Source: Streptosporangiaceae bacterium (GTDB taxonomy: Bacteria > Actinomycetota > Actinomycetes > Streptosporangiales > Streptosporangiaceae). Taken from it: a stretch of DNA of 5,865 bases. The position numbers were made by a program, and so were the translations under genes. Positions within the stretch are counted from its first letter, which is position 1. Each line of letters begins with the position of its first letter. The stretch spans positions 1-5,865 of the forward strand of contig JASHQP010000004.1 in the NCBI GenBank assembly GCA_030039095.1, given 5' to 3'. The notes under the pieces were generated by a model. That model worked only from the letters and a program-made list of their open reading frames with translations. It was not told the DNA's origin and did not search any database. Shown here piece after piece: positions 1 to 5,865 of the stretch.

Positions 1-105
1 CGACTGTGACGTCCTCATCAGCCTTGCCACGCCGGCTTGAGAGAGACCGGACGCCTCGCGCCGGCGTGTCAGCCGGGCGATGAGCTCACGCTGGCGGTCG
101 TCCAT
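1..105 (-). CDS. XRE-type helix-turn-helix regulator, N-terminal fragment (cut by left edge)
   Basis: Reading the minus strand from the ATG at 105 gives 35 codons that stay open to the window edge. The protein begins MDDRQRELIARLTRRREASG and continues LSQAGVARLMRTSQS. This is the typical start of a Cro/C1 (XRE) DNA-binding domain: a basic first helix, then the 'LSQ..VA..M..SQS' helix-turn-helix from about residue 21. Proteins of this kind are cytoplasmic transcription regulators or antitoxins; which one this is cannot be told from the fragment. The ATG is the only usable start, because upstream the frame has no ATG, GTG or TTG before an in-frame TAG near 183-185. No clear Shine-Dalgarno sequence precedes it. 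It lies downstream of qcrB on the same strand, separated by 153 bp, and probably has its own promoter. The family call is fairly secure; the function is unknown. Confidence 0.72.
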   Translation of the reverse strand, partial: MDDRQRELIARLTRRREASGLSQAGVARLMRTSQS

Positions 106-258: not shown

Positions 259-1899
259 CTAGCGGCCCGTACCGACAGACCGGTTACGGGGTGGGCTGGC
301 GCCGTGGCCGTTGGCACCGCCGTTGCCGTTGCCGTCGGTGCCGGGCGGCGGGACGGATTCGGTCAGCACCTGGTTGAGCCGGAGCCGGACGCGGCCGAGG
401 CTGCCGCCCAGGCCGGGTGGCGGCGCGTCCTGGCCGTCATCGGGTTCCCCGCCGGACAGGGCGGCCCGGGCGGCGGGGACCCCGAGCGCGGCGCGCTCGT
501 CGTCGGTGAGCGGCCTGGTCTCCTCGACGTACTCGCCGCTCGGCAGCTGGCGGATGATCCCGGTCTCCACACCGTGCTCCAGCAGGTGCAGATCCTTGCG
601 CTGCAGGCCCAGGCAGATCCGCTTGGTCACGATGTAGGCGACGACCGGGCCGATGAACACCGCGTACCGGACGATCTCCGTGGTCAGGAACAGCGAGATG
701 TTCAGGTGATCGGCGATCACGTCGTTGCCGCCCTCGGCCCACAGGATGCCGTAGAACGTGATCACCGCCATGCCGATCGCTGTCCGGGTCGGCGCGTTGC
801 GCGGGCGGTCGTTGAGGTGGTGCTCGCGCTTGTCGCCGGTGATCCACTGCTCGAGGAACGGCCAGAACGCGGCGCCGGCCAGGATCAGGCCGAGCGGCAC
901 CAGGAAGGGGATGAGCACGTTCCAGGCCACGGTGTGGCCCCAGGCATCCCAGGTCCAGTTCGGGAACATCCGCAGGGCGCCCTCCATGAAGCCCATGTAG
1001 AAGTCCGGCTGCGAGCCGGAGGAGATCCCGACGGGAGTGTACGGCCCATACAGCCAGATGGGGTTGACCTGCACGAACGTCGCAGCCAGCGCCAGCGCGG
1101 CGAACGTGAACAGGAAGAACGCCCCGGTCTTGACCATGAAGTATGGGTAGAACGGCTGGCCGACGACGTTGGCGTTGGTGCGGCCCCTGCCCGGCATCTG
1201 GGTGTGCTTCTGCCAGACCGTCAGGAACACGTGCGCGCTGACGAGAGCCACCAGCACGCCCGGGATCAGCAGCACGTGGATGATGTACAGCCTGGGGATG
1301 ATGTCGTTGCCCGGGTACGGCCCGCCGAACAGGAAGAACGTCAGGTAGGTGCCGACCACCGGGATCGAGAGCAGCGCACCCTCCAGGATCCGCATCCCGG
1401 TGCCGGACAAGAGGTCGTCGGGCAGCGAGTAGCCGAACAGGCCCTCCAGCAGCGCGAGAGCGAACATCACGACGCCGATCAGCCAGTTCACCTCGCGCGG
1501 CTTGCGGTAGGAGCCGGTCAAGAAGTGCCGGATCATGTGGGCCATCATCGACGCCAGGAACAGGTCGGCGGCCCAGTGGTGGATCTGCCGCATCAGCAGG
1601 CCGCCGCGCACGTCGAAGCTGATGTTGAGGGTCGACGCGTACGCCTCGCTCATCCGGACGCCGTCCAGGTTGTGGTAGCTGCCGTGATAGACGATCGGCT
1701 GCATGCTCGGCTGGAAGAACAGCGTCAGGAACGTCCCGGTCAGCAGCAGGATGACGAACGAGTACAGCGCGATCTCACCCAGCAGGAACGTCCAGTGGTC
1801 CGGGTAGACCTTGCGCAGGAAGGTGCGCACTCCCCCGGCTCCCCGGAACCGGTCATCCAGCCAGCCGCCGACGCCCTCCAGGGCCCGCCCAGTACTCAT
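259..1899 (-). CDS. qcrB: Cytochrome bc1 complex cytochrome b subunit (QcrB), orphan copy
   Basis: This 546-residue membrane protein is the quinol-oxidising cytochrome b of the actinobacterial menaquinol:cytochrome c reductase (complex III). Visible family marks are the N-terminal 'HWTFLLGEIALYSF' block, haem ligands His107/His121 in 'QIHHWAADLF...AHM' and His208/His223 in 'IIHVLL...SAH'. Helix D has 14 residues between its ligands, the b6f-like spacing. 'SLPDDLLSG' is at 158-166, PDFY at 298-301 replaces the mitochondrial PEWY, and 'LEHGVETGIIRQLPSGEY' lies near 440-457. About eight hydrophobic segments span residues 40-430. A hydrophilic Pro/Gly/Asn-rich tail follows from about 460. Length matches the family, at about 540-550 residues. 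The start is supported by GGTGA (minus strand, 1910-1906) six bases ahead of ATG. qcrC and qcrA, which normally precede qcrB, are absent; the upstream neighbour is a divergent SDR gene. No key residue is missing, so I expect a functional protein, perhaps a paralogue of a main qcrCAB copy elsewhere. Confidence 0.95.
   Translation of the reverse strand: MSTGRALEGVGGWLDDRFRGAGGVRTFLRKVYPDHWTFLLGEIALYSFVILLLTGTFLTLFFQPSMQPIVYHGSYHNLDGVRMSEAYASTLNISFDVRGGLLMRQIHHWAADLFLASMMAHMIRHFLTGSYRKPREVNWLIGVVMFALALLEGLFGYSLPDDLLSGTGMRILEGALLSIPVVGTYLTFFLFGGPYPGNDIIPRLYIIHVLLIPGVLVALVSAHVFLTVWQKHTQMPGRGRTNANVVGQPFYPYFMVKTGAFFLFTFAALALAATFVQVNPIWLYGPYTPVGISSGSQPDFYMGFMEGALRMFPNWTWDAWGHTVAWNVLIPFLVPLGLILAGAAFWPFLEQWITGDKREHHLNDRPRNAPTRTAIGMAVITFYGILWAEGGNDVIADHLNISLFLTTEIVRYAVFIGPVVAYIVTKRICLGLQRKDLHLLEHGVETGIIRQLPSGEYVEETRPLTDDERAALGVPAARAALSGGEPDDGQDAPPPGLGGSLGRVRLRLNQVLTESVPPPGTDGNGNGGANGHGASPPRNRSVGTGR
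301..342. repeat. Hexanucleotide minisatellite in the qcrB 3' end
   Basis: Seven consecutive six-base units follow GCCGTT or a close variant (GCCGTG, GCCGTT, GGCACC, GCCGTT, GCCGTT, GCCGTC, GGTGCC). On the coding (minus) strand they give a Gly/Asn-rich stretch, residues 520-533 of QcrB, with alternating Gly-Asn. It lies in the non-conserved hydrophilic tail. Changes in unit number would stay in frame, so length variation between strains is likely to be tolerated. Confidence 0.6.
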
Positions 1900-2008: not shown

Positions 2009-2022
2009 TGAGCGCTCGCTCA
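2009..2022. promoter_or_regulatory. Inverted repeat TGAGCG-CT-CGCTCA, putative operator, copy 1
   Basis: This is a perfect dyad with 6 bp arms and a 2 bp centre, lying between divergent qcrB and the SDR gene. It ends five bases before the TTGACA of the likely SDR promoter and 42 bases before the SDR start codon. The same site, differing in one central base, occurs at 2935-2948 ahead of the next operon. Recurrence in two intergenic regions supports a protein-binding site. The cognate regulator is not visible. The centre lacks the CG step usual in LacI-family operators, so a TetR- or GntR-type dimer is as likely; that is inference. Confidence 0.68.
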
Positions 2023-2027
2023 GGGTC

Positions 2028-2058
2028 TTGACATATGCCCAGAGCGCTGGTGCAGGAT
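2028..2058 (+). promoter_or_regulatory. Putative SDR promoter, TTGACA-N19-CAGGAT
   Basis: TTGACA at 2028-2033 is a perfect -35 hexamer. CAGGAT at 2053-2058 resembles the actinobacterial -10 (TAGRAT) in 5 of 6 bases, though the 19-base spacer is slightly long. A transcript from here would begin at about 2064-2065, on or beside the A of the ATG at 2065, implying a leaderless or nearly leaderless mRNA. The putative operator lies immediately upstream. The competing reading is that transcription starts further upstream and the AGGA at 2054-2057 serves as a ribosome site. Confidence 0.45.
2054..2057 (+). promoter_or_regulatory. Possible Shine-Dalgarno AGGA of the SDR gene
   Basis: AGGA lies seven bases ahead of the ATG at 2065 and favours this start over the in-frame ATG at 2035, which has only AGGG nine bases upstream. 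It overlaps the proposed -10 element, so it can act only if transcription begins upstream of it. Confidence 0.4.
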
Positions 2059-2064
2059 CAGACG

Positions 2065-2865
2065 ATGACAGGGGCAGCGATTCCGGCACCCGGCCTGCTG
2101 GGCGACCTCGGCCTGCGCGGCGCCGCGATCATCGTCACGGGGGCGAGCAGCGGGATCGGCGCGGCAACGGCCACGGCGCTCGCCACGGCCGGGGCCAGCG
2201 TGGTGCTGGTCGGCCGGCGCGAGGACGCGCTGAAGGCTCAGGCCGACGTGGTCGCCGCGGCGGGCGCGGAGGCACTGGCGGTGCCCGCGGATATGGCGGA
2301 GCCCGGCAGCCCGGCACGGATCGCCGCGGCCTGCCGGGACCGGTTCGGCCGGATCGACGGCGTCGTCAACAACGCCGCGGTCGTCCGGCACCAGCCGCTG
2401 GCGGACTGGGATAGGGACGACTTCGACCGGCACCTCGCGACGAATGTGCGCGGCCCGTACTTCCTGATCCAGGCGGCGGTGCCGGATCTGACCGCCTCGC
2501 CGATCGGGTCCGTGGTGAACATCGGATCCTCGTCCGGGGCCATCCACCTGTCCGGCCAGTCCGTGTACGGCATGACCAAGGCCGCGCTGAACTACCTCAC
2601 GATCAGCCTGGCCGGGGAGCTGGCCCCAATCGGCATCAGGGTCAACTGCATCGGCCCAGGCCCGATCGACACCCCGATCCACGCGACCTGGGCCGATGAC
2701 CTCGAGGCGGCTTATCAGTGGCTGGCCGAGCAGGTCCCACTCGGCCGGATCGGCGAAGCAGGCGAGGTCGCCCGGTGGATCGCGTTCCTGCTCTCTCCCG
2801 TCTCATCGTTCATGACCGGGGCCGTGATCCCGCTGGATGGGGGCCAGGTGATCCACCGTGTCTGA
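2065..2865 (+). CDS. Classical short-chain dehydrogenase/reductase (SDR), NAD(P)-dependent
   Basis: This 266-residue cytoplasmic oxidoreductase probably interconverts a secondary alcohol and a ketone using NAD(P). The classical SDR order is visible: cofactor loop TGASSGIG (25-32), NNAA (102-105), Asn127, catalytic Ser155 in 'NIGSSSG', and Tyr168/Lys172 in YGMTK. Near the C-terminus are 'RVNCIGPGPIDT' and 'MTGAVIPLDGG'. Arg51-Arg52 after the second strand suggest NADP(H), but this is not decisive. Length is normal for the family (about 250). I chose the ATG at 2065 because an upstream in-frame ATG (2035) would lengthen an already long N-terminus and overlaps the TTGACA promoter element. It is divergent from qcrB and is followed after 106 bp by the epimerase operon, which carries the same inverted repeat upstream. 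It may therefore work in the same sugar or polyol pathway. The substrate cannot be read from the sequence. Confidence 0.93.
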   Translation: MTGAAIPAPGLLGDLGLRGAAIIVTGASSGIGAATATALATAGASVVLVGRREDALKAQADVVAAAGAEALAVPADMAEPGSPARIAAACRDRFGRIDGVVNNAAVVRHQPLADWDRDDFDRHLATNVRGPYFLIQAAVPDLTASPIGSVVNIGSSSGAIHLSGQSVYGMTKAALNYLTISLAGELAPIGIRVNCIGPGPIDTPIHATWADDLEAAYQWLAEQVPLGRIGEAGEVARWIAFLLSPVSSFMTGAVIPLDGGQVIHRV

Positions 2866-2885
2866 GCTGACCCCTGCTGACCTCT
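2866..2885. repeat. Tandem decamer GCTGACCYCT, two copies
   Basis: Two adjacent 10-base units, GCTGACCCCT and GCTGACCTCT, begin directly after the SDR stop codon and run into the -35 element of the next promoter (TTGCCA at 2885-2890). A one-turn (10 bp) period just upstream of a -35 box could be an activator site, but two short copies can also arise by chance. Confidence 0.35.
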
Positions 2886-2913
2886 TGCCAGGCAGCGCCT
2901 GCATCTTCATACT
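2885..2913 (+). promoter_or_regulatory. Putative promoter of the DUF4432-epimerase-dehydrogenase operon
   Basis: TTGCCA (2885-2890, 5 of 6 consensus bases) is followed after exactly 17 bases by CATACT (2908-2913, 4 of 6 consensus bases). Transcription would start near 2920. The second inverted repeat (2935-2948) would then lie about 15-28 bases inside the transcript, where a bound repressor could block initiation or elongation. The area is unusually AT-rich for this window (2903-2950). No experimental support is available. Confidence 0.5.
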
Positions 2914-2934
2914 GCTGAGCAAATAACCACATCA

Positions 2935-2948
2935 TGAGCGTTCGCTCA
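2935..2948. promoter_or_regulatory. Inverted repeat TGAGCG-TT-CGCTCA, putative operator, copy 2
   Basis: Thirteen of 14 bases are identical to the site at 2009-2022; only the first centre base differs. Here the flanking A and T (2934 and 2949) extend the arms to 7 bp. The extended dyad ends 22 bases before the GTG start of the DUF4432 gene and lies just downstream of the predicted transcription start. Placement suggests repression by the same regulator that acts at copy 1. Confidence 0.7.
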
Positions 2949-2958
2949 TTACGGGCTC

Positions 2959-2971: not shown

Positions 2972-4081
2972 GTGGTCTACCTGTGGGGACGCCAGTGGTC
3001 CCGGGGCGAGCTGCAGGCGCGGGTCGGCCGGCTCGAGCAGCTCGCTGGCGTCCAGCTGGTGGAGGCCGCGGACGGTGCCGAGCGCGGGGTCCGGCTGCTG
3101 CGGTTCGCCACCGGGGCCGGATTCGACTTCGAGGTCCTGGTCGACCGGGGGTTCGACGTCGGCCGGGCCCGGCTCGGGGGCAGGCCGCTCTCCTGGTGGT
3201 CGCCGGTCGGACTGACCGGCCCGTGGTACTACGAGCCCGCCGGGATCGGCTGGTTCCGCGGGTTCCCCGGCGGGCTGGTGTCCACGTGCGGGCTGGACTC
3301 GGTGCAGCTTGGCGGCACCGACGACGCGACAGTCTTCAACTACCCGCACCGCAGGACCGAGACCTACGGCCTGCACGGCCGGTACCCGGGCCTGCCCGCC
3401 CGGCTGGCCGGGTACGGCGCCACGTGGGCCGGGGACGAGTGCGTGCTCTGGGCGCAGGGCGAGGTGCTGCAGGCCGCGGTGTTCGGCGAGCAGCTGCAGC
3501 TGAGCCGCCGGATCGAGGCGGACCTGGGCGGCACCAGCGTGCGGATCACCGATACGGTCACCAACGTCGGCGCGACCGCGTGCCCGCACATGCTGCTGTA
3601 CCACTGCAATATCGGCTTCCCCGTCGTCGACGACGGTGCCGAGATCGCCTACCCCGCGCCCCCCGGGGTCTGCGTCAGCGAAGCGAGCTCGCCGGACTAC
3701 CGGCACCTCGAAGGCCCCGAGCCGGCCTTTGTCGAGGAGTGCTACGAGCACGACATGGTGCCCGGCGCCGACGGGTACGTGACCGCCGCCGTGCTGAACC
3801 CAGCCGCCGGCCTGGGCGTCTACCAGCGGTACCGCAAGGACCAGCTGCCGCACCACGTGACGTGGCGCCAGCTGGGCTCCGGCACCTACGTGGTCGCCAT
3901 GGAGCCCGGCACGAACCGCGACGCGGGCCGCTTCGACGCCCGGGAACGCGGTGAGCTCATCCACCTGGCCCCGGGCGAGCAGCGCCACTACGAGCTGGAG
4001 CTCGGCGCGCTCACCAGCGTGGCGCAGGTCGAAGCGTTCCGGGGCCGGAACGAGGAGCTGGCTGCTGGAGCGGTCACGTGA
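2972..4081 (+). CDS. DUF4432 family protein, aldose 1-epimerase-like
   Basis: This 369-residue soluble protein matches my memory of the DUF4432 family, a branch of the galactose-mutarotase (aldose 1-epimerase) beta-sandwich superfamily. Visible features are the 'LWGR.WSR.EL..RVG' opening, 'ADGAERGVRLL' (33-43), 'FEVLVDRGFDVGRA' (53-66), 'WYYEP' (85-89), 'STCGLD' (104-109) and 'YGLHGR' (132-137). The His-rich 'PHMLLYHCNIGFP' (205-217) resembles the mutarotase active-site strand, and Glu311 in 'VVAMEPGTN' is a candidate catalytic acid/base. It probably binds a sugar or sugar derivative and changes its anomeric form. The family's substrates are poorly known, so this stays general. The GTG start at 2972 has GGAGG eight bases upstream. 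Its TGA overlaps the GTG of the next gene by four bases, so the two are co-transcribed and probably translationally coupled. It is the first gene of the operon and lies directly behind the second inverted repeat. Confidence 0.85.
   Translation: MVYLWGRQWSRGELQARVGRLEQLAGVQLVEAADGAERGVRLLRFATGAGFDFEVLVDRGFDVGRARLGGRPLSWWSPVGLTGPWYYEPAGIGWFRGFPGGLVSTCGLDSVQLGGTDDATVFNYPHRRTETYGLHGRYPGLPARLAGYGATWAGDECVLWAQGEVLQAAVFGEQLQLSRRIEADLGGTSVRITDTVTNVGATACPHMLLYHCNIGFPVVDDGAEIAYPAPPGVCVSEASSPDYRHLEGPEPAFVEECYEHDMVPGADGYVTAAVLNPAAGLGVYQRYRKDQLPHHVTWRQLGSGTYVVAMEPGTNRDAGRFDARERGELIHLAPGEQRHYELELGALTSVAQVEAFRGRNEELAAGAVT
4067..4070 (+). promoter_or_regulatory. Shine-Dalgarno GGAG for the GTG start at 4078
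   Basis: GGAG inside the 3' end of the DUF4432 gene stands seven bases ahead of GTG 4078. The alternative in-frame ATG at 4093 has no comparable site, so the GTG that overlaps the upstream stop is preferred. Confidence 0.6.
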
Positions 4082-4851
4082 CCGGTTCTGGGATGCCGCT
4101 GGCGGGCCAGGCGGGCACCGGGCCGCGGCTGTCCGCCGGGGTGATCACCGCGGACCTGACCCGGCTGGGCGCGGAGATGGACGTGATCCGCGGCCGGGCC
4201 CACTGGGCGCACATCGACGTCATGGACGGCGCGTTCTGCCCGCAGCTCACCGTCGGCCCCTCGTTCGTCCGGGCGGTGGCGTCGACCGGCGTCCCCGTGG
4301 ATGCGCACCTGCTGGTCGCCGAGCCGCTGCGCTTCCTGCCGCAGGTTGTGCACGCGGGAGCCGAGATCGTCACCGTGCACGCCGAGTCGGGCCGCCATCC
4401 GCACCGGGCGCTGCAGGAGCTCAGCCAGCTGTCCGCCGGCGTGCGGCCGGTGATTCGCGGTTACGCGATCAACCCGGGCACGCCGGTGCAGGCGATCGAG
4501 CCGGTGCTCGATCTCGTGGACCTGGTGCTGGTGCTCGCCGTGAACCCGGGCTGGTCCGGCCAGGCGCCCGCCGCAAACACCGCCCGCCGGATCGCCGCAG
4601 CCCGCGAGATCACCAGCGCCGCCGGCCATCCGGTCCTGGTGGGCGTCGACGGCGGGGTGAGCCTGGCGAACGCCGCCGAGGTCGCCGGCTGGGGCGCCGA
4701 CATCGTGGTCAGCGGCAGCGCGATCTTCGACGGCAAGGACGCCCCCGGCAACCTGGCCGCGATGCTCGCGGCGCTCGGCGCGCCGCCCGCCGGCCAGGCC
4801 GGGCCGGCTCCCGTTCCCGTTCCCTCTCCCGCGGCAGGAGGTCGATTGTGA
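4078..4851 (+). CDS. Ribulose-phosphate 3-epimerase-like protein
   Basis: This 257-residue (beta/alpha)8-barrel protein belongs to the ribulose-phosphate 3-epimerase family, which epimerises ketose phosphates at C3 with a bound divalent metal. All four metal/catalytic positions are visible: His45 and Asp47 in 'AHIDVMDG', His77 in 'VDAHLLV', and Asp191 in 'VGVDGGVS'. The mobile loop reads 'VNPGWSGQ' (155-162) against the common 'VEPGFGGQ'. The C-terminal phosphate-site strand is 'VSGSAIF' (211-217). The Ser of the N-terminal 'PSILSAD' motif is replaced by Gly21. Family length is about 220; the excess is about 15 N-terminal residues and a Pro/Ala/Gly-rich tail ('APVPVPSPAAGG'). Its place in a sugar operon and the altered residues suggest a specialised ketose-phosphate epimerase rather than the housekeeping pentose-phosphate Rpe; that is inference. 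GTG 4078 overlaps the previous TGA, and its own TGA overlaps the next GTG. Confidence 0.88.
   Translation: MTGSGMPLAGQAGTGPRLSAGVITADLTRLGAEMDVIRGRAHWAHIDVMDGAFCPQLTVGPSFVRAVASTGVPVDAHLLVAEPLRFLPQVVHAGAEIVTVHAESGRHPHRALQELSQLSAGVRPVIRGYAINPGTPVQAIEPVLDLVDLVLVLAVNPGWSGQAPAANTARRIAAAREITSAAGHPVLVGVDGGVSLANAAEVAGWGADIVVSGSAIFDGKDAPGNLAAMLAALGAPPAGQAGPAPVPVPSPAAGGRL
4836..4842 (+). promoter_or_regulatory. Shine-Dalgarno AGGAGGT for the GTG start at 4848
   Basis: This near-perfect anti-16S match lies inside the end of the epimerase gene, five bases ahead of GTG 4848. It decides the start of the dehydrogenase and implies strong independent ribosome loading in addition to coupling through the GTGA overlap. 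Confidence 0.8.
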
Positions 4852-5865
4852 GCCGGCAGGGCCAGCCCGTGCGAGTGCTCGCGATCGGTGACCCGTTCAT
4901 GCCGGCGACCTGTTTCGCCGAGGCGCTCGCGAGCCTGGGCGATGCGGTGACCGTCACCTCGATGCAGATCGACCGGACCGACGCCGAGCCGGCGGGGACC
5001 GAGTCGGAGAAACGGCTGAAGGAGTACGCCGGTGACCCGGCCGAGGTCGCGGCGGCGGTCCCTGGGCACGACGTCGTGGTCGTGCACGGCGCCCCGGTGA
5101 GCGCGCAGGCGCTGGACGCGCCGGGCCTGCGCCTGGTGTGCTGCGCCCGGGGCGGCCCGGTCAACGTCGACGTCGCGGCGGCCACGGACCGGGGCATCCC
5201 GGTGGCGATCACGCCGGGCAAGAACGCCGAGGCCGTCGCGGAGCTGACGATCGCGTTCGCGCTGATGCTGATCCGCGGCGTGCCACGGGCGGCACGTCAC
5301 ACCGCTGACGGCGGCACGGTGGCCGAGTCCAACTACGAGGGCGCGGAGTTCATCGGCCGGGAAGCCCCGGGCACGGTGCTCGGCCTGGTGGGCCTTGGTC
5401 ATGTGGGGCGGCACGTGGCGGTGCGCGCGCTCGCGCTGGGGTTCGACGTGATCGCGCACGACCCGGTGACCCCGGCCGGCGTGCCGGACGGGGTGCGGCT
5501 GGTCAGCCTGGAAAGCCTGCTCGCGGGCGCGGATCTGGTCTCGGTGCACGCCCGGGCCACCGTGGCGAACTGGCACATGTTTTCCTCGGCGGCTTTCGCG
5601 GCGATGAAGCCGGGCGCGGGCTTCATCAACACCGCGCGCGAGTCGCTGGTAGATGAGGACGCGCTCGCGGACGCGGTGCGCTCCGGGCATCTGGCCGGCG
5701 CGGCGCTGGACGTGGTGGAAAGGCCGGCCGGCGGCGGGCGGCACCCGCTGCTGGATCTTCCGGCGGTGTTCATCACGCCGCACATCGGCGGCGCGACGGC
5801 CGAAACGCTGGATCGCGGCGCCCGCCAGGCGGCGGCCGCCGTGGCCGCGGTGCTGGCCGGCGGGC
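4848..5865 (+). CDS. D-isomer-specific 2-hydroxyacid dehydrogenase, NAD-dependent (cut by right edge)
   Basis: From GTG 4848 the frame is open to the window end: 339 codons, beginning MSRQGQPVRVLAIGDPF, with no stop reached. It is a PGDH/formate-dehydrogenase-like 2-hydroxyacid dehydrogenase that interconverts a D-2-hydroxyacid and a 2-oxoacid. Seen in order are the substrate-domain motif 'ARGGPVNVD' (100-108), 'NAEAVAELT' (the hinge to the cofactor domain), and the Rossmann motif G182-L-G184-H-V-G187. Asp205 at the end of 'FDVIAHD' favours NAD. The catalytic residues are Arg264 (in 'NTARES'), Glu291 (in 'DVVERP') and His312 (in 'PHIGG'). About 315-350 residues is usual, so little is probably missing unless a C-terminal regulatory domain follows. 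The substrate loop is shorter than the 'R.G.G.DNVD' of serine-pathway PGDH, so I do not call it serA. The operon position suggests a sugar-acid substrate. The start is set by AGGAGGT and the GTGA overlap with the epimerase gene. Confidence 0.88.
   Translation, partial: MSRQGQPVRVLAIGDPFMPATCFAEALASLGDAVTVTSMQIDRTDAEPAGTESEKRLKEYAGDPAEVAAAVPGHDVVVVHGAPVSAQALDAPGLRLVCCARGGPVNVDVAAATDRGIPVAITPGKNAEAVAELTIAFALMLIRGVPRAARHTADGGTVAESNYEGAEFIGREAPGTVLGLVGLGHVGRHVAVRALALGFDVIAHDPVTPAGVPDGVRLVSLESLLAGADLVSVHARATVANWHMFSSAAFAAMKPGAGFINTARESLVDEDALADAVRSGHLAGAALDVVERPAGGGRHPLLDLPAVFITPHIGGATAETLDRGARQAAAAVAAVLAGG

What the first reader, a model, noticed from the sequence alone, without database searches (positions are those of the whole stretch)
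2009..2948. Same 14 bp dyad upstream of two adjacent transcription units: a candidate local regulon
TGAGCGCTCGCTCA (2009-2022) and TGAGCGTTCGCTCA (2935-2948) are each perfect 6+2+6 inverted repeats and agree in 13 of 14 bases. I found no third copy in the window, and both lie in short intergenic gaps next to promoter-like hexamers. Copy 1 abuts the -35 side of the SDR promoter; copy 2 lies just downstream of the predicted operon transcription start. This links the SDR to the DUF4432-epimerase-dehydrogenase operon as one regulated pathway and gives a searchable motif for an unknown regulator. Copy 1 might also affect divergent qcrB.
Basis: partly seen in the sequence, partly recalled or inferred. 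Interest (0 to 1): 0.7.

Follow-up and report, generated by a model that had tools for sequence, protein, structure and literature searches.

The report
Paired repressor-type sites, sugar-gene operons
In an uncultured soil-type actinobacterium, the same short mirror-image DNA word sits in front of two neighbouring sets of sugar-metabolism genes and most likely lets one TetR-type repressor switch both, which is a normal kind of bacterial gene control with an unidentified regulator.

Summary
TGAGCGCTCGCTCA (2009-2022) and TGAGCGTTCGCTCA (2935-2948) are perfect 6+2+6 dyads; copy 2 extends to 7+2+7. They are the only same-arm dyad pair in the window. In 1000 shuffles that kept the composition of genes and gaps, no such pair fell in the two promoter gaps. 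In 45 genomes of a Streptosporangiaceae-like family the exact motif occurs 30 times in 309 Mb, so a second copy within 1 kb has a chance of about 2e-4. The most likely reading is a two-operator local regulon of one dimeric repressor, probably TetR. Best outside support: the motif, doubled, stands ahead of an orthologous gene in a Streptomyces plasmid and in one genome of that family; in the plasmid the operon ends with a TetR gene. An exact copy also lies in a thiolase-gene leader of seven genomes. Against it: TetR genes are not enriched near the motif, counts barely exceed the backward control, the window's only other regulator candidate is a cut Xre-like gene without the site, and conservation at orthologous loci could not be tested. 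A real, ordinary cis-regulatory element with an unidentified regulator.

The parts
2009..2022 (.). Copy 1, TGAGCGCTCGCTCA, candidate operator upstream of the SDR -35 (about -56 to -43 if transcription starts at the ATG)
2041..2054 (.). Degenerate repeat AGAGCGCTGGTGCA, 32 bp downstream of copy 1 (4 mismatches in the 12 defined bases); possible weak second operator, may be chance
   Evidence: compare the 32- and 34-bp spacing of doubled sites in L502 and L374
2028..2058 (+). Candidate SDR promoter TTGACA-19-CAGGAT, placing +1 at or next to the ATG at 2065 (leaderless); the -10 is weak and the promoter scan did not list it
   Evidence: sequence; not listed; the region is kept as V[QH]D[QH]TM in the 276-residue relatives
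2065..2865 (+). SDR oxidoreductase, 266 aa (glucose 1-dehydrogenase subfamily model just over its cut-off)
2885..2913 (+). Candidate operon promoter TTGCCA-17-CATACT
2934..2949 (.). Copy 2, ATGAGCGTTCGCTCAT (7+2+7), candidate operator in the early transcribed region of the operon
2972..4081 (+). DUF4432 (aldose 1-epimerase-like), GTG start, Shine-Dalgarno GGAGG at 2959-2963
4078..4851 (+). Ribulose-phosphate 3-epimerase-family protein (under the rpe equivalog cut-off), overlaps the DUF4432 stop
4848..5864 (+). D-2-hydroxyacid dehydrogenase (PGDH-like, under equivalog cut-offs), overlaps the previous stop, cut by the window end
259..1899 (-). qcrB (bc1 cytochrome b), divergent neighbour of the SDR; a possible but untested target of copy 1

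Best explanation
The two dyads are binding sites of one dimeric helix-turn-helix repressor, most likely of the TetR/AcrR family, encoded elsewhere in this Streptosporangiaceae-like genome. One dimer binds each TGAGCGNTCGCTCA. At copy 2 (about +16 to +29) it blocks initiation or early elongation of the DUF4432-epimerase-dehydrogenase operon. At copy 1 (just upstream of the -35, perhaps helped by a degenerate copy 32 bp downstream) it hinders polymerase binding at the SDR promoter. A sugar- or sugar-acid-derived ligand would release both. Shown: sequence, rarity, placement, and gene linkage in relatives as far as contig lengths tell. Inferred: function as an operator, the TetR assignment, repression rather than activation, the ligand.
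For: Perfect symmetry and 13/14 identity of two copies with different flanks. 0 of 1000 composition-kept shuffles put a same-arm pair in the gaps. The motif is rare: 30 in 309 Mb of 45 family genomes, and the six genomes with several sites have them on different contigs. Doubled motif (TGAGCA..CGCTCA plus TGAGCG..CGCTCA, 34 bp apart) ahead of an SRPBCC-like gene, a DUF4166 gene and a TetR gene in a Streptomyces plasmid, and again (one exact, one with a mismatch, 32 bp apart) ahead of an ortholog of the first gene (61% identity) in G612. Exact motif in the leader of a thiolase gene in 7 genomes; in the 5 aligned, 13 of 14 site columns are invariant against 12 of 20 and 6 of 20 in the columns before and after. 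Gene linkage in relatives: shared contig lengths SDR-dehydrogenase 12, DUF4432-dehydrogenase 11, DUF4432-SDR 5, against 0-1 per offset control (part of the rows).
Against: No TetR gene in the window; its only regulator candidate is a cut Xre-like HTH gene at 1-105 (HTH_31, 22.6 bits, under the 27-bit cut-off) with no copy of the dyad upstream (best 5 mismatches). TetR genes are not generally close to the motif: 1 of 70 held motif sites against 1 of 30 control sites in the phylum sample, and that motif site lies inside another gene; none in the 22 loci (up to 3 kb) of the family sample. These counts used a small home-made TetR model, so misses are likely. Motif counts barely exceed the backward control (30 v 19, one-sided p 0.076), and 17 of the 30 family sites lie inside genes by a GC-frame test (12 of 22, 5 of the other 8). 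In G612 the contig ends before a TetR gene could be seen behind the ortholog. In the thiolase leaders other blocks are also well kept (33 of 40 columns further downstream invariant). The Nonomuraea and Streptomyces sp. BHT-5-2 thiolase regions lack the motif. Copy 1 upstream of the -35 is an unusual place for a repressor. Conservation at orthologous loci was not testable.
Confidence: 0.58

Rival explanations
1. Operator of another dimeric regulator class (MarR, GntR, IclR, Xre, an unusual LacI), with the same joint control of both units.
For: Symmetry and placement do not name a family. A Chloroflexi relative of the DUF4432 gene lies near a LacI gene (L001), a Deinococcus one near an AraC gene (L090), and the Streptomyces plasmid region holds LacI, FCD-type and TetR genes (L091). 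A cut Xre-like gene lies at the left edge of the window.
Against: The axis bases CT and TT lack the central CpG of LacI operators (recalled). The doubled copies of this motif stand at an operon with a TetR gene. The Xre-like gene has no dyad upstream.
Confidence: 0.23
2. Chance: two unrelated palindromes of the same sequence.
For: Same-arm dyad pairs appear somewhere in 227 of 1000 shuffles. Many exact sites elsewhere lie inside genes (17 of 30 family sites), and the motif is only slightly commoner than its backward control.
Against: 0 of 1000 shuffles place a pair in both gaps. Chance of a second exact copy within 1 kb about 2e-4.
Confidence: 0.1
3. Copy 2 acts as an RNA hairpin in the 5' leader, and copy 1 is unrelated or acts in a qcrB leader.
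For: The copy 2 leader folds with a 6-bp stem over the dyad, -17.7 kcal/mol, z -2.1, 6 of 200 shuffles as good.
Against: Copy 1 lies upstream of the SDR -35 and its folds are not better than shuffles (z 0.01, and z 1.52 on the qcrB strand). No Rfam match up to E 0.1. Two 13/14 identical copies are better explained by a DNA-binding protein.
Confidence: 0.08

Closest known systems
TetR-family operators of Streptomyces, e.g. SCO7222 (TGGAACG-N-CGTTCCA, footprinted; PMC3511530, passages seen)
   Same: Short perfect dyad with a 1-2 base centre, more than one copy, in a promoter gap, GC-rich actinobacterial host.
   Different: Different half-site (TGAGCG against TGGAACG), centre of 2 not 1; SCO7222 is encoded next to its sites, whereas no TetR gene is in this window.
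Doubled TTGAGCRNNYGCTCAA ahead of the SRPBCC-like / DUF4166 / TetR operon of L374, and ahead of the ortholog of its first gene in G612 (found here)
   Same: Same 6+2+6 core motif, in a promoter, one site close to the gene start.
   Different: Two sites 32-34 bp apart at one promoter and outer T..A bases; in the window the outer bases are G..G (copy 1) and A..T (copy 2), and the intact sites lie at two promoters 926 bp apart.
Leader site TGAGCG(CG/GG)CGCTCA of the thiolase gene (L114, L115, L117, L118, L120, L384, L388)
   Same: Same arms, located just after a candidate -10, as copy 2 is downstream of its -10.
   Different: Other genes and a CG or GG centre; its regulator was not identified here.
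lac-type (LacI) operators
   Same: Contain TGAGCG-like half-sites (recalled).
   Different: LacI operators have a CpG at the dyad axis (recalled); here the axis is CT or TT and the arms are further apart.
BkaR operator (PMC3920632, passages seen)
   Same: TetR-type dimer on a dyad present twice near its targets in an actinobacterium.
   Different: Core GTTA(N)T(N4)A(N)TAAC, unrelated to TGAGCG.

Membership tests
TetR-family regulator operator | short inverted repeat suited to a dimer | tested here: met
   6+2+6 and 7+2+7 dyads
TetR-family regulator operator | lies at a promoter of the target | tested here: met
   copy 2 at about +16 of a scanned promoter; copy 1 next to TTGACA by reading only
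TetR-family regulator operator | TetR gene in the neighbourhood carrying the same site | tested here: inconclusive
   none in this 5865-base contig; met in a Streptomyces plasmid operon; not enriched in genome samples, small home-made model
TetR-family regulator operator | direct binding by a TetR protein | not testable with these tools
   needs EMSA or footprinting
LacI-family operator | central CpG at the dyad axis (recalled rule) | tested here: not met
   axis bases are C/T and T/T in the two copies
Regulon (shared operator at several units) | site conserved at orthologous units in related genomes | not testable with these tools
   no held genome with the locus was reached: the 80 kept loci are at most 57% identical; 1 of 374 class genomes (a 56% relative) and 0 of 341 family genomes at E 1e-140 or better
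Regulon (shared operator at several units) | target genes are functionally linked | tested here: inconclusive
   contig-length linkage supports it but is a proxy, with long contigs and two impossible lengths; overlapping start/stop codons inside the operon
Rfam RNA element | match to a known leader RNA | tested here: not met
   no match up to E 0.1

The most novel reading that the evidence does not exclude
TGAGCGNTCGCTCA marks an undescribed TetR regulon that couples a DUF4432-type carbohydrate oxidation pathway (SDR, mutarotase-like DUF4432, epimerase, hydroxyacid dehydrogenase) to a separate cytochrome b of the bc1 complex through copy 1, so that sugar oxidation and a respiratory component are switched together.
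Probability: 0.12. Interest if true: 0.45.

Novelty: new member of a known kind. Interest (0 to 1): 0.27.

Why it matters
It gives a searchable operator for a set of uncharacterised sugar-metabolism genes found in uncultured actinobacteria, and comparative leads to the regulator class. If true, the ligand of the regulator would point to the substrate of the DUF4432 pathway (one search found no paper in the library that holds both DUF4432 and epimerase).

Tried and rejected
Direct conservation test. The genome-contig scan with a 20-sequence DUF4432 alignment found 149 relatives and kept 80 loci, none closer than 57% identity and none with the motif. Searches of genomes gave 1 of 149 (class of G001, G001 itself) and 8 of 396 (phylum of G001, E 1e-126 to 1e-155) at E 1e-100 or better. 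The class of G267 gave 1 of 374, a 56% relative, and the family of G521 0 of 341, at E 1e-140 or better; the tool notes that such an empty answer shows nothing by itself, and G521's family need not be the window's. Viral-contig scans for DUF4432, SDR and QcrB found no relative.

Protein proxy for the sites. Among the 120 listed DUF4432 relatives most start at the same codon as the window's gene, so few extend far enough upstream to show the site; none shows a clear signature. One, P0083, reads MSECS twelve codons before the start, which would fit a one-mismatch copy; too weak to use.

Contig-length linkage. Only part of the rows was copied: 61, 74 and 67 distinct lengths for DUF4432, dehydrogenase and SDR, from 120 rows each. 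Two shared lengths (1863 and 3251 bases) are too short for the genes in the window's order and are probably coincidences; several others are contigs of 0.1-1.5 Mb, where a shared contig does not mean neighbours.

My checkpoint note took the phylum of G001 for Chloroflexota from genome sizes. That was wrong: G267 is Streptomyces-like and G521 Nonomuraea-like, so the sample is Actinomycetota.

TetR enrichment near the motif: not found. The one TetR neighbour in the phylum sample (L112) was a coding coincidence. The pSCAT site lies in a frame that reads as MerR-like (recalled, no family search). Viral contigs with the exact 14-mers (both scans stopped at 120 stretches) were only sorted by open frame: 15 of 242 sites without an open frame of 300 bases.

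Literature. No paper in the library holds either 14-mer, their complements, TGAGCGNNCGCTCA or GAGCGNNCGCTC written out. Other searches gave no listed paper that pointed to this operator; I saw listings only, and of some only a part (30 of 52; 19 of 19; 9 of 9; 20 of 21; 25 of 218; none; 10 of 114). I read passages of two papers. An operator printed as a logo, in other notation or in a paper not held would have been missed.

Full report
What is there. The window is one 5865-base contig with no genome held behind it. It carries qcrB on the minus strand (259-1899), then on the plus strand an SDR (2065-2865), and after a 106-base gap a DUF4432 gene (2972-4081), a ribulose-phosphate-epimerase-family gene (4078-4851) and a D-2-hydroxyacid dehydrogenase cut by the window end (4848-5864). 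The last three overlap by start and stop codons. At the left edge the first 35 codons of an Xre-like HTH gene (1-105, minus strand) run off the window (HTH_31, 22.6 bits against a cut-off of 27). The protein relatives that carry a taxon name in the lists are called Streptosporangiaceae.

The dyads. TGAGCGCTCGCTCA (2009-2022) and TGAGCGTTCGCTCA (2935-2948) are perfect 6+2+6 dyads, 13 of 14 bases alike, and copy 2 is 7+2+7. Their flanks are unlike each other (printed), so they are not parts of a longer shared repeat. No copy with fewer than 3 mismatches exists elsewhere in the window.

Chance. Pairs of dyads sharing an arm are common in this GC-rich DNA (50 of 300 shuffles; 227 of 1000), so the pair alone is not remarkable. 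Its placement is: 0 of 300 with both copies in any of three intergenic stretches and 0 of 1000 with both in the two promoter gaps, composition kept per segment. In 45 genomes drawn from the family of G521, which is Nonomuraea-like (81% DNA identity over 58% of a 3.5-kb qcrB locus), the exact motif occurs 30 times in 309.3 Mb, in 22 of 45 genomes, against 19 for the backward control. By a GC-frame test 12 of 22 sites and 5 of the other 8 lie inside genes. At that rate a second exact copy within 1 kb has a probability of about 2e-4. No genome of the 45 has two sites on one contig. In 17.7 Mb of seven named actinobacterial plasmid records there were two sites and two control sites. In the phylum sample 95 of 396 genomes have the motif, and the backward pattern is in 50 of 246.

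Promoters. For the operon the scan found TTGCCA-17-CATACT at 2885-2913, which puts copy 2 at about +16 to +29. For the SDR I read TTGACA (2028-2033), a 19-base spacer and CAGGAT (2053-2058), which would start the transcript at or next to the ATG at 2065; the scan did not list it, and the -10 is weak. In the 276-residue SDR relatives the stretch before this ATG reads V[QH]D[QH]TM, so the region and its distance to the ATG are kept in close relatives. Copy 1 then lies at about -56 to -43. A degenerate copy, AGAGCGCTGGTGCA, lies 32 bp downstream of copy 1; it may be chance.

What uses this motif elsewhere. In the Streptomyces sp. NBC_00841 plasmid the only exact site stands in an intergenic promoter, with a one-mismatch copy 34 bp upstream. 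The genes behind it encode an SRPBCC-like protein (Polyketide_cyc2, under its cut-off), a DUF4166 protein and a TetR regulator. In G612, of the Streptosporangiaceae-like family, a doubled arrangement (one exact, one with a mismatch, 32 bp apart) stands ahead of an ortholog of the first gene (61% identity); its contig ends inside that gene, so a TetR gene behind it cannot be checked. Separately, seven genomes of the phylum sample (G267, G297, G316, G326, G453, G469, G484) have an exact site in the leader of a thiolase gene, seven of 70 held motif sites. Five of these genomes are Streptomyces-like by DNA similarity at this locus; for G316 another locus was tested and G484 was not tested. In the five aligned loci 13 of 14 site columns are invariant, against 12 of 20 before and 6 of 20 after, but 33 of the next 40 are invariant too. 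The corresponding Nonomuraea and Streptomyces sp. BHT-5-2 regions lack it. So the motif looks like a promoter element at several unrelated genes in Actinomycetota, one of which shares its operon with a TetR gene.

Against a simple rule. TetR genes are not enriched near the motif: 1 of 70 motif sites and 1 of 30 control sites had one within 1.2 kb, and the motif case is inside another gene. None of the 22 family loci (up to 3 kb) has one. Among 11 further stretches three have a TetR gene, one of them with the site inside it, the others with the site about 1.5 and 2.2 kb away. The TetR model behind these counts was built here from three seeds and 15 sequences and will miss some. The TetR assignment therefore rests on architecture, on the doubled-site operon and on the poor fit to LacI. 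I put the best reading at 0.58 and 'some dimeric operator' at about 0.8.

Function of the target genes. A DUF4432 gene stands beside an SDR gene in several distant relatives, and in a Chloroflexi MAG it lies in a cluster with an FGGY kinase, an aldolase, an epimerase of the same family and a LacI gene. In close relatives the SDR, DUF4432 and dehydrogenase proteins recur on contigs of equal length: 12 shared lengths for SDR-dehydrogenase, 11 for DUF4432-dehydrogenase, 5 for DUF4432-SDR, offsets 0-1. Two of these lengths are too short for the window's gene order and several are very long contigs, so this is support, not proof. A carbohydrate or sugar-acid oxidation pathway is the natural reading, the substrate unknown.

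Known or new. Short dyads with a 1-2 base centre are common among TetR operators (recalled); SCO7222 of Streptomyces, with three perfect TGGAACGNCGTTCCA repeats footprinted, is a close comparison (PMC3511530, passages). No paper in the library holds these 14-mers. This is a new member of a known kind. The mechanism (repression of both units, with ligand release) is inferred from position and family habit, not shown.

Noticed in passing
L114, L115, L117, L118, L120, L384, L388 (sites listed): Exact TGAGCG(CG/GG)CGCTCA in the leader of a thiolase gene in seven genomes, at least five of them Streptomyces-like, just after a GTTACT..TAGCAT promoter-like stretch; looks like an operator of a beta-oxidation promoter.
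   Followed up: partly
L374:5452-5499 and L502:3250-3295: Doubled TGAGCRNNYGCTCA sites 34 and 32 bp apart ahead of orthologous SRPBCC-like genes; in L374 the genes run on through DUF4166 to a TetR gene, a likely autoregulated TetR operon.
   Followed up: partly
window 1-105, minus strand: First 35 codons of an Xre-like HTH gene (HTH_31, under cut-off) run off the left edge; no copy of the dyad lies upstream of it.
   Followed up: partly
window 259-1899: qcrB stands alone: the gene beside its start is the divergent SDR, not a Rieske gene. It may be a second cytochrome b copy; G521 has two QcrB matches.
   Followed up: no
L091:11240-11400: In a Streptomyces plasmid with an SDR-DUF4432 pair, a nearby TetR gene has two GAACGTTC-type sites in inverted order in its promoter gap (sequence printed).
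   Followed up: no
L296:4188-4201 and 4836-4849: A viral contig carries TGAGCGAACGCTCA twice, 648 bp apart, each next to a GA-rich run; possible phage transcription element.
   Followed up: no
window 2866-2885: Tandem 10-mer GCTGACCCCT/GCTGACCTCT directly after the SDR stop codon.
   Followed up: no
L489, around 1501: The motif sits at the centre of a long hairpin outside the called genes, perhaps a terminator; shows that not every exact site is an operator.
   Followed up: no
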